Shown in pieces: positions 24,691 through 37,933 of a DNA stretch of 64,000 nt (position 1 is the stretch's first letter; the number at the start of each line of letters is the position of its first letter). Source of the DNA: an uncultured Elusimicrobia bacterium (GTDB lineage: Bacteria > Elusimicrobiota > Elusimicrobia > Elusimicrobiales > Elusimicrobiaceae). A program made the position numbers and the translations under genes. Under the pieces are notes generated by a model, which searched no databases, was not told the origin of the DNA, and saw only the letters and a program-made list of their open reading frames with translations. The stretch is taken from contig CAMECJ010000001.1 in the NCBI GenBank assembly GCA_945913025.1, positions 62,001 through 126,000 of the forward strand, read 5' to 3'.

Positions 24691-25174
24691 TTAAAATCCC
24701 ATACTTTTGCATAACCCTGAAATTTTACTGCTACACTCCGTTTTGCCCGGATTTGCGGAATTGTCCAACCAAACAATATATTTGGAAATTGCCTGCTGAT
24801 CTAGTGGGGTGGTATTCATATTTTTGCCGTTGTCGGGAATACCGTGCGTATCCCAAAATACTAAATCGGCGTGTACATCAGCAAACATATCTACAGCAAA
24901 TTTATCGCACCATAACATATAACGCCCCCCCCCCGTCTGTACAGCCAGGATATTCAATATCCAATTCGCTCCAGTAGTTGGGATAATTCCCGTTAGCCAT
25001 ATAATACACTTCCATAGCGTCTTTGAGTGATTTTGCGGCAGTTTGCAACTGCGTAAACCGGCTTTTGGCTACGGCTTTTTGATATTGCGGTAATGCGACG
25101 GCGGATAATATGCCGATAATCAGTACAACAACCAATAATTCGATAAGGGTAAAGCCCTGTTTTGTGTATTGCAT
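24691..25174 (-). pseudogene. Type IV pilin-like gene interrupted by frameshift at a G10 tract (possible phase-variable gene)
   Basis: N-terminal part [35 protein letters not shown]...DIEYPGCTDGGG in one frame (ORF to 24902); continuation RYMLWCDKFAVDMFADVH...TECSSKISGLCKSMGF in the next frame (ORF 24691..24957). Break at plus-strand C10, 24925-24934. Confidence 0.85.
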
Positions 25175-25199: not shown

Positions 25200-25420
25200 G
25201 GAAAACACGATGCAAAAAACGGCCGTCCAGTGCCAAGGCTTATCAGGGCTTGACAAAAAACAGCCGTAGTTCCTTGCCATATAAAATGGCAAGGAACATT
25301 CGGCACAACGCAATCGGGTAATTAGTCCGTTTGCGTTGTGCCTAAAACGACCGTTTTTGGACCTGATAAGCTCTTTAGTTTCCTAAAGACCTCCTATTCT
25401 GCATAGGATTCCAAAAACAG
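25200..25420 (-). ncRNA. Structured pilin 5' leader RNA, copy 1 (unclassified)
   Basis: Upstream of pilin start 25174; pseudoknot-forming helices and hairpins conserved with compensatory changes relative to 37682-37883. Confidence 0.75.
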
Positions 25421-25497
25421 ATTAAATTGTAGTGTGCCTACGACTTAAACCTTTCTATAAAGGCTTCTTATTATATCATATTTGTATATAAAAAATA

Positions 25498-37144: not shown

Positions 37145-37636
37145 TCAGTAATGGGTATCCGTATAACCTTGGGAAGCCAGCGAAAGGCAAATATATTGCC
37201 AGCCTGTATTTCTCCGGCACGTGTATTTCCACTGTTCTTCTTCTAACGTATTCCATAACTGGTAGCTAAAATTATCGTTGGAGTGTAGGCGTGTAGCTAT
37301 AATATAACAGGTATTTGCAGAACAGAAAGCCTGATAGCGAAAATTTTTAGAAGAGCACCCCTCTGTTCCGGTCGGGCAGGAAAGGGCGTGTGTCAGATCT
37401 ATATCTAATTCATCCGTACTTCCGTCACCCAAAAAAGTTGTTCCGGTATAACCGTTCGCCAGTACGTAAGTTTCTACTGCCGTGCGCAAAGATGACATAA
37501 TCGTCAGGGCCTCGCTCATACGGCTTTTTTCTACCGCTTTTTCGTATTGCGGCAGCGCGACGGCCGCCAAAATGCCTATAATCAGTACCACAACTAATAA
37601 TTCGATAAGGGTAAACCCTCTCTTATTTTTTTGCAT
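37145..37636 (-). CDS. Type IV pilin-like protein
   Basis: [74 protein letters not shown] upstream of ATG. Confidence 0.92.
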   Translation of the reverse strand: MQKNKRGFTLIELLVVVLIIGILAAVALPQYEKAVEKSRMSEALTIMSSLRTAVETYVLANGYTGTTFLGDGSTDELDIDLTHALSCPTGTEGCSSKNFRYQAFCSANTCYIIATRLHSNDNFSYQLWNTLEEEQWKYTCRRNTGWQYICLSLASQGYTDTHY

Positions 37637-37681
37637 GACGTTCTCCTTGAGTCTCCGTTTTTGGAAAACACGCCGCAAAAA

Positions 37682-37883
37682 AAACGGCTGCAAAATGAGG
37701 GTCCAACCACGGTCCCGTCATCAAACAGCCGTAGTTCCTTGCCATAAATAATGGCAAGGAACATTCGGCAGAAGATACATTCGGGAGCTACCCGTTTATA
37801 TCTTCTGCCTAAACCAGCTGCTTTTGGACGTGGTTGGAATTTGGTTTCCCAAATACCCCTATTCTTCATAGGATTCCAAAAAC
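37682..37883 (-). ncRNA. Structured pilin 5' leader RNA, copy 2 (unclassified)
   Basis: Same architecture as 25200-25420 with compensatory substitutions in several stems; lies between LEA14-like gene and pilin start. Confidence 0.75.
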
Positions 37884-37933
37884 AGATAAATTTTTACCGT
37901 GTTATATACACGGGTCCTTCTTAAAAAATCCTC

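What the first reader, a model, noticed from the sequence alone, without database searches (positions are those of the whole stretch)
25200..25420. Pseudoknotted structured RNA leader upstream of a pilin gene (copy 1 of a two-copy motif)
Seen directly, minus strand 5'->3': GTTTTTGG (25418-25411); hairpin CCTAT-gcaga-ATAGG (25407-25393); hairpin CTTTAG-gaaa-CTAAAG (25388-25373); CTTATCAGG (25370-25362); CCAAAAAC (25360-25353); 12-bp hairpin GGCACAACGCAA...TTGCGTTGTGCC (25342-25302); hairpin GTTCCTTGCCAT...ATGGCAAGGAAC extended by GCCG/CGGC and followed by TGTTTTTTG (terminator-like); then CCTGATAAG (25247-25239). Pairing GTTTTTGG/CCAAAAAC with CTTATCAGG/CCTGATAAG gives order a-b-a'-b', an H-type pseudoknot with a' and b nearly abutting. 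The element ends ~30-60 nt before the pilin SD and contains a terminator-like hairpin, so attenuation or riboswitch-like control of pilin expression is a reasonable inference. I do not recognise it as a known class.
Basis: partly seen in the sequence, partly recalled or inferred. Interest (0 to 1): 0.9.

Follow-up and report, generated by a model that had tools for sequence, protein, structure and literature searches.

The report
Barcoded attenuator leaders of pilin genes
In front of a pilus gene of a gut bacterium sits a ~205-nt RNA switch that looks able to stop or allow transcription of the gene; the same switch recurs tens to more than a hundred times per genome in its relatives, mostly before pilus genes, and each copy carries its own 10-letter 'zipper' sequence that pairs only with its own partner.

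Summary
The structured leader is real, and larger and stranger than reported. It spans window 25420-25215 (minus), with a second copy at 37885-37680. The genome holds at least 18 copies; two relatives hold at least 93 and 128. It occurs in two families of gut Elusimicrobiota (95 of 342 phylum genomes) and matches no Rfam family. Most helices, b:b' included, covary.

The 'pseudoknot' strands b (25371-25362) and b' (25247-25238) are complementary in nearly every copy (mode 10 bp; 4 bp when copies are swapped). Their sequence is private to each copy: 80 copies of one genome carry 80 different codes.

Folding of successive lengths indicates that b:b' is the outer, nested part of an antiterminator that excludes both the 5' helix P1 and the terminator. 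Best reading: a transcription attenuator with a locus-specific antiterminator zipper, mostly before type IV pilin genes, otherwise before surface, glycosyltransferase or DNA-methylase genes. The trigger and the reason for private zippers are unknown. No expression data were available.

The parts
25470..25478 (-). extended -10 promoter-like box TGATATAAT of copy 1
   Evidence: read from the upstream sequence printed; -10-like boxes are frequent upstream of other copies; no transcript data
25215..25420 (-). copy 1, whole element as matched by covariance model R2
   Evidence: 174.2 bits, E 4e-51
25410..25420 (-). strand a (CTGTTTTTGGA), 5' strand of helix P1
25372..25409 (-). hairpins P2 and P3
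   Evidence: covariation; coordinates
25362..25371 (-). b, 5' half of the private zipper (GCTTATCAGG)
25351..25361 (-). a' (TCCAAAAACGG), 3' strand of P1
25347..25355 (-). s1 (AACGGTCGT), antiterminator strand, overlaps a'
25268..25346 (-). hairpins P5 and P6 with short linkers
   Evidence: covariation; coordinates
25259..25267 (-). s2 (ACGGCTGTT), shared by antiterminator (with s1) and terminator (with s3)
25238..25247 (-). b', 3' half of the private zipper (CCTGATAAGC), apical loop of the terminator
25215..25267 (-). intrinsic terminator s2-T5-b'-T3-s3 plus T run
   Evidence: (helices 7 and 8)
24902..25174 (-). downstream pilin gene, 90 aa as assembled, N_methyl motif; a run of 10 G lies within it
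37680..37885 (-). copy 2, whole element; zipper TCCAACCACG (37838-37829) with CGTGGTTGGA (37711-37702)
37145..37636 (-). pilin gene downstream of copy 2
   Evidence: ORF; N_methyl motif over cut-off

Best explanation
The element is a cis-acting transcription attenuator with a copy-specific antiterminator zipper. Transcription starts a little upstream of strand a (inferred from -10 boxes). The RNA first folds helix P1 (a:a') around hairpins P2, P3 and the free strand b. As s2 appears it pairs with s1, part of which lies in a', and begins to open P1. When b' appears it zips to b over about 10 bp and completes an antiterminator hairpin that encloses P5 and P6 and excludes P1 (computed, not measured). 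Once s3 is made, the intrinsic terminator s2:s3 together with P1 becomes a few kcal/mol more stable. Whether polymerase stops therefore depends on whether the zipper and s1:s2 hold long enough. Anything that keeps P1 closed or occupies b or b' would favour termination; anything that stabilises the antiterminator would favour expression. The trigger is unknown. Because each copy has its own b/b' sequence, leaders in one cell should not zip to one another, so each pilin or surface gene could be controlled independently (inferred). Shown: sequences, covariation, copy numbers, gene association. Computed: folding path. Inferred: termination in vivo, direction of control, purpose of private codes.
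For: Intrinsic terminator with T run before the start codon in nearly all copies, and covarying helices on the gene-sense strand. s2 complementary to both s1 and s3; in four distant copies s1, s2 and s3 differ together and still pair both ways (sequences, by eye). b:b' matched in nearly all of 242 copies, mode 10 bp against 4 bp when swapped. Folding of 223 copies by length: P1 100% after a'; zipper 100% and P1 0% after b'; terminator 90% and P1 91% at full length; swapping b leaves the zipper in 6% (also 66). Antiterminator only a median 5.3 kcal/mol above the best full-length fold. Fixed order of -10 box, element, gene.
Against: No transcript or termination data. Nearest-neighbour folding ignores pseudoknots and kinetics, and the terminator fold wins at full length, so the expressed state must be kinetic or assisted. 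Pairing of a' with T5, which would make the antiterminator continuous, is only slightly above shuffled. No trigger found.
Confidence: 0.68

Rival explanations
1. Kissing pseudoknot: P1, the terminator and b:b' coexist, with b' in the terminator loop pairing to b inside P1 and forming one compact RNA. b:b' would then strengthen or tune the terminator rather than oppose it.
For: b' fills the terminator's apical loop, b abuts a', and the code length is nearly constant at about 10.
Against: b:b' is nested with s1:s2 and is the minimum-energy state of RNA that ends before s3, where P1 is lost. s1 and a' share nucleotides, so P1 and s1:s2 compete.
Confidence: 0.22
2. Ligand- or protein-gated attenuator: a metabolite or RNA-binding protein recognises the P1-P3 domain or the P5/P6 junction and sets the switch. 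This is a version of the best explanation in which the trigger is a bound molecule.
For: a' is shared by P1 and the antiterminator, as in terminator-type riboswitches (own knowledge). A few unpaired positions near P5/P6 are almost invariant.
Against: The P1-P3 domain has almost no conserved unpaired nucleotides; downstream genes share no metabolic pathway; only one NusG homologue, so no LoaP/UpxY-like paralogue seen.
Confidence: 0.3
3. Trans key: a separate small RNA, or the released terminated leader itself, carries the same code and opens or blocks the zipper of its own locus only, as antisense RNA does in plasmid copy-number attenuators.
For: Codes are private within a genome yet recur by descent between genomes, as expected if the sequence is an identity mark.
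Against: No separate key RNA was found or searched for genome-wide. Codes are not farther apart than random ones, so trans interference is not shown.
Confidence: 0.15
4. The repeat is mainly a DNA feature, such as a mobile or recombination element whose palindromes mimic an RNA.
For: Dispersed, many copies, varied downstream genes; one chimera (L172) has b of one code and b' of another.
Against: Fixed order -10 box, element, gene; frequent G-U pairs on the gene-sense strand; terminator T run; no match in viral contigs.
Confidence: 0.05

Closest known systems
Leader attenuators with mutually exclusive helices (trp type and terminator-type riboswitches; own knowledge)
   Same: Promoter, leader, alternative antiterminator and intrinsic terminator, then gene; the 3' strand of the 5' helix is shared with the antiterminator.
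   Different: No leader peptide in copies whose -10 box almost abuts strand a, no conserved aptamer core, and a copy-specific 10-bp helix.
pT181-type antisense attenuators and their engineered orthogonal family (PMC3753616)
   Same: Transcription attenuation decided by RNA-RNA pairing; a family of mutually independent attenuators made by changing the pairing sequences.
   Different: Those act with a separate antisense RNA and the orthogonal set is engineered (7 x 7); here the pairing partners lie in one leader and the family is natural, with tens to more than 100 members per genome.
pil1 attenuation of Streptococcus gallolyticus (PMC3894217)
   Same: A premature stem-loop terminator in the leader controls pilus genes.
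   Different: There, repeat changes in a leader-peptide gene set translation over the terminator; the pili are of another type and there is one locus, not a coded family.
T-box leaders (own knowledge)
   Same: Several copies per genome, common backbone with a short variable specificity sequence, terminator/antiterminator output.
   Different: The T-box variable codon reads a tRNA; here the variable sequence pairs with a second sequence in the same leader. No Rfam match.

Membership tests
Intrinsic-terminator transcription attenuator | terminator hairpin plus T run between promoter and gene | tested here: met
   promoter only by -10-like sequence
Intrinsic-terminator transcription attenuator | alternative antiterminator that uses the same strand | tested here: met
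   s2 pairs with s1 and with s3; computed switch
Intrinsic-terminator transcription attenuator | regulated termination in vivo or in vitro | not testable with these tools
   no transcript data
Known Rfam riboswitch or leader classes | covariance-model score above the gathering cut-off | tested here: not met
Metabolite riboswitch | conserved unpaired aptamer core | tested here: not met
   few conserved unpaired positions, mainly around P5/P6 and s1
H-type pseudoknot | both crossing helices formed at the same time | not testable with these tools
   both helices are supported singly, but folding programs cannot score them together and the nested alternative is favourable
LoaP/UpxY (NusG-paralogue) antitermination | specialised NusG paralogue in the genome | tested here: not met
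   one NusG match in a 97% complete assembly
Leader-peptide attenuation | translated leader ORF upstream of the switch | tested here: inconclusive
   many copies have a -10-like box 10-30 nt before strand a, but others have AGGAG-like sequence further upstream
pT181-type antisense attenuation | separate antisense RNA partner | not tested
   no genome-wide key search and no transcript data

The most novel reading that the evidence does not exclude
The private zipper is a self-recognition code. Terminated leaders act in trans only on transcripts with the same code, giving each of up to more than 100 pilin and surface genes its own RNA feedback or memory, so that a cell can switch them independently without a protein regulator per gene.
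Probability: 0.15. Interest if true: 0.97.

Novelty: new variant of a known kind. Interest (0 to 1): 0.88.

Why it matters
Attenuators and riboswitches are known, but I know of no natural family of cis-acting attenuators present in tens to more than a hundred copies per genome, each with a different matched 10-bp switching helix on a common backbone. It suggests a protein-free way to control a very large pilin repertoire one gene at a time (this 1.76-Mb genome alone has about 112 N-methylation motifs over the cut-off, although only a minority carry the element here). It is also a natural library of apparently non-crossing RNA switches, and it makes directly testable how gut Elusimicrobiota choose among so many pilins.

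Tried and rejected
P6 as the terminator: rejected; it is kept in both folds and the T-run hairpin lies just downstream. Two-copy motif: rejected. Pilin-only association: rejected; 73 of 124 copies in a mixed set precede pilins, others precede glycosyltransferases, methylases, secreted proteins or lipoproteins, although one genome is 79 of 80 pilin. Code tied to the downstream gene: not supported; reciprocal best pilins mostly carry different codes, and a code found before a pilin here occurs before an EcoRI-type methylase in another genome. Codes spaced beyond chance within a genome: not supported. Long continuous a':T5 pairing: only slightly above shuffled. NusG paralogue: absent. Viral origin: no pattern match in viral contigs. 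The first energy comparison with the terminator fully forbidden gave no valid structure and was replaced. Literature searches found no description of the element; the E. minutum genome paper, which I recall as reporting many pilin genes, is not held.

Full report
WHAT IS THERE. Read 5' to 3' they are: a (CTGTTTTTGGA), hairpins P2 and P3, b (GCTTATCAGG), a' (TCCAAAAACGG), s1 (AACGGTCGT, overlapping a'), hairpins P5 and P6, s2 (ACGGCTGTT), T5, b' (CCTGATAAGC), T3, s3 (GGACGGCCG) and a T run. A pilin gene with its own Shine-Dalgarno follows (N_methyl 1.4e-8). A second copy lies at 37885-37680 before another pilin.

A LARGE FAMILY. blastn found further copies in the same genome. A covariance model from 12 of them (R1) finds 18 full-length matches here (the weakest three score 52-66 bits) and copies in most congeners. 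A pattern scan of GTDB genomes returned 104 stretches, nearly all from Elusimicrobiota MAGs of rumen and gut; of the 80 listed, the three with other names (two 'Clostridia', one Collimonas) gave no model match. Model R2 finds the element in 95 of 342 phylum genomes: most of genus g1, all of g15, 14 genomes of family f21, and one weak hit elsewhere. Ca. Ruminimicrobiellum, which carries it, belongs to Endomicrobiaceae. Searched alone, three genomes gave 93, 128 and 34 matches at E up to 1e-6, with at most 150 candidates scored; a few such matches can be reverse-strand echoes of the same palindromes (echoes seen). No viral contig matched the pattern, and no Rfam family matches.

STRUCTURE BY COVARIATION. 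On A6 (40 distinct copies), 94.4% of pair cells are paired against 75.0% shuffled and under 47% slid; 61 of 78 pairs have changes on both sides, and 0 of 500 shuffles reach any observed measure. A2 (88 copies) agrees: 92.5%, 60 pairs. These alignments are fitted to the model's nested helices, so those counts lean towards them; b:b' was not in the model. P1 and the outer terminator stem hardly vary. P2, P3, P5, P6, the inner terminator stem and b:b' all covary. G-U pairs are common in most helices on this strand, which indicates the RNA strand, but rare in b:b'.

PRIVATE ZIPPERS. In 242 copies the longest perfect b:b' run peaks at 10 bp; swapped between genomes it peaks at 4. Code positions 1-7 have 1.7-2.0 bits of entropy. 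Within a genome no two codes were equal: 0 of 1256 pairs, and 80 copies of G081 have 80 codes. Even copies of one genome with backbones 83-94% identical differ in code (28 pairs, none above 8/10). Between genomes identical codes recur far above chance (38 pairs against 0.4 expected), sometimes with only about 72-75% backbone identity. So the code is inherited but differs among paralogues. I could not show that codes within a genome are farther apart than random ones. L172 is a chimera with unmatched b and b', and a few own-genome copies (L021, L030, L032, L033) have lost the match.

HOW IT PROBABLY WORKS. s2 is complementary to s1 (mostly 7-10 bp) and to s3, and the 3' part of a' is the 5' part of s1. 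In four distant copies (L243, L244, L245, L256) s1, s2 and s3 differ together and still pair both ways (sequences, judged by eye). Minimum-energy folds of successive lengths of 223 copies give one path: P1 after a' (100%); s1:s2 joining after s2 (91%); the zipper with P1 gone after b' (100% and 0%); terminator plus P1 at full length (90% and 91%). With b replaced by another copy's b, the zipper forms in 6% and P1 persists in 28%. At full length the antiterminator lies a median 5.3 kcal/mol above the best fold. I therefore read b:b' as the distal, nested part of an antiterminator that competes with P1 and with the terminator. A true kissing state with P1 and the terminator cannot be scored by these programs and is kept as a rival.

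CONTEXT. Extended -10-like boxes lie upstream, often only about 10-30 nt before strand a, and AATTT is common just before it. In G081, 79 of 80 fetched copies precede a pilin. In the mixed set 73 of 124 do; the others precede glycosyltransferases, EcoRI-type and N6/N4 DNA methylases, RgpF-like proteins, secreted proteins or lipoproteins. Such genes are often phase-variable in other bacteria (own knowledge). The own genome has about 112 N-methylation motifs over the cut-off, so only a minority of its pilins carry the element.

TRIGGER AND PURPOSE. Unknown. A single NusG homologue argues against a LoaP/UpxY-like factor. A leader peptide is unlikely in copies whose -10 box almost abuts strand a. 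A few nearly invariant unpaired positions around P5/P6 could be a contact site. Private zippers would keep leaders from pairing with one another; whether this insulates loci or serves recognition of self in trans is open.

LIMITS. The records seen by name are metagenome assemblies. Model E-values are rough. Orthology was not established independently of the codes. Folding ignores pseudoknots, proteins and kinetics. No expression data were available.

Noticed in passing
window 24925-24934 (minus strand, inside the pilin gene of copy 1): A run of 10 G puts the pilin out of frame: as assembled it ends at 90 aa, while the rest of the coding sequence continues in another frame (ORF 24691-24957). 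It may be a phase-variable tract or an assembly error.
   Followed up: partly
G000 (whole genome): 115 matches to the N-terminal methylation motif PF07963, 112 over the cut-off, in 1.76 Mb: a very large pilin/pseudopilin repertoire.
   Followed up: partly
window 24902-25174: The window pilin has a weak, below cut-off match to ComP_DUS, the DNA uptake sequence receptor.
   Followed up: no
L107, L123, L242: EcoRI-type adenine methylase genes follow the element in genomes of two families; L107 and L123 share their codes with the two window copies, which precede pilins.
   Followed up: partly
L172 261-467: Chimeric element: b belongs to code CATTCTGAGT and b' to code CATTTTCCCT, so recombination between copies occurs.
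   Followed up: partly
G026 loci L195-L230, downstream ORFs: Several pilins of this genome have long N-terminal extensions before the prepilin motif that look like in-frame dispersed repeats (for example ...[29 protein letters not shown]).
   Followed up: no
G319 loci L261-L274: A repeated stretch with inverted arms (gataagctgagaag ... cttatcagct) follows many copies, and several of these contigs end nearby, suggesting a dispersed repeat between leader and gene.
   Followed up: no
L026 (G000:C3:168424-168608): The element is followed by a pilin that stops after about 27 aa ([27 protein letters not shown]) and is joined to another gene.
   Followed up: no
L242 1268-1687: Two elements in tandem with the same b; the second one's b' no longer matches.
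   Followed up: no
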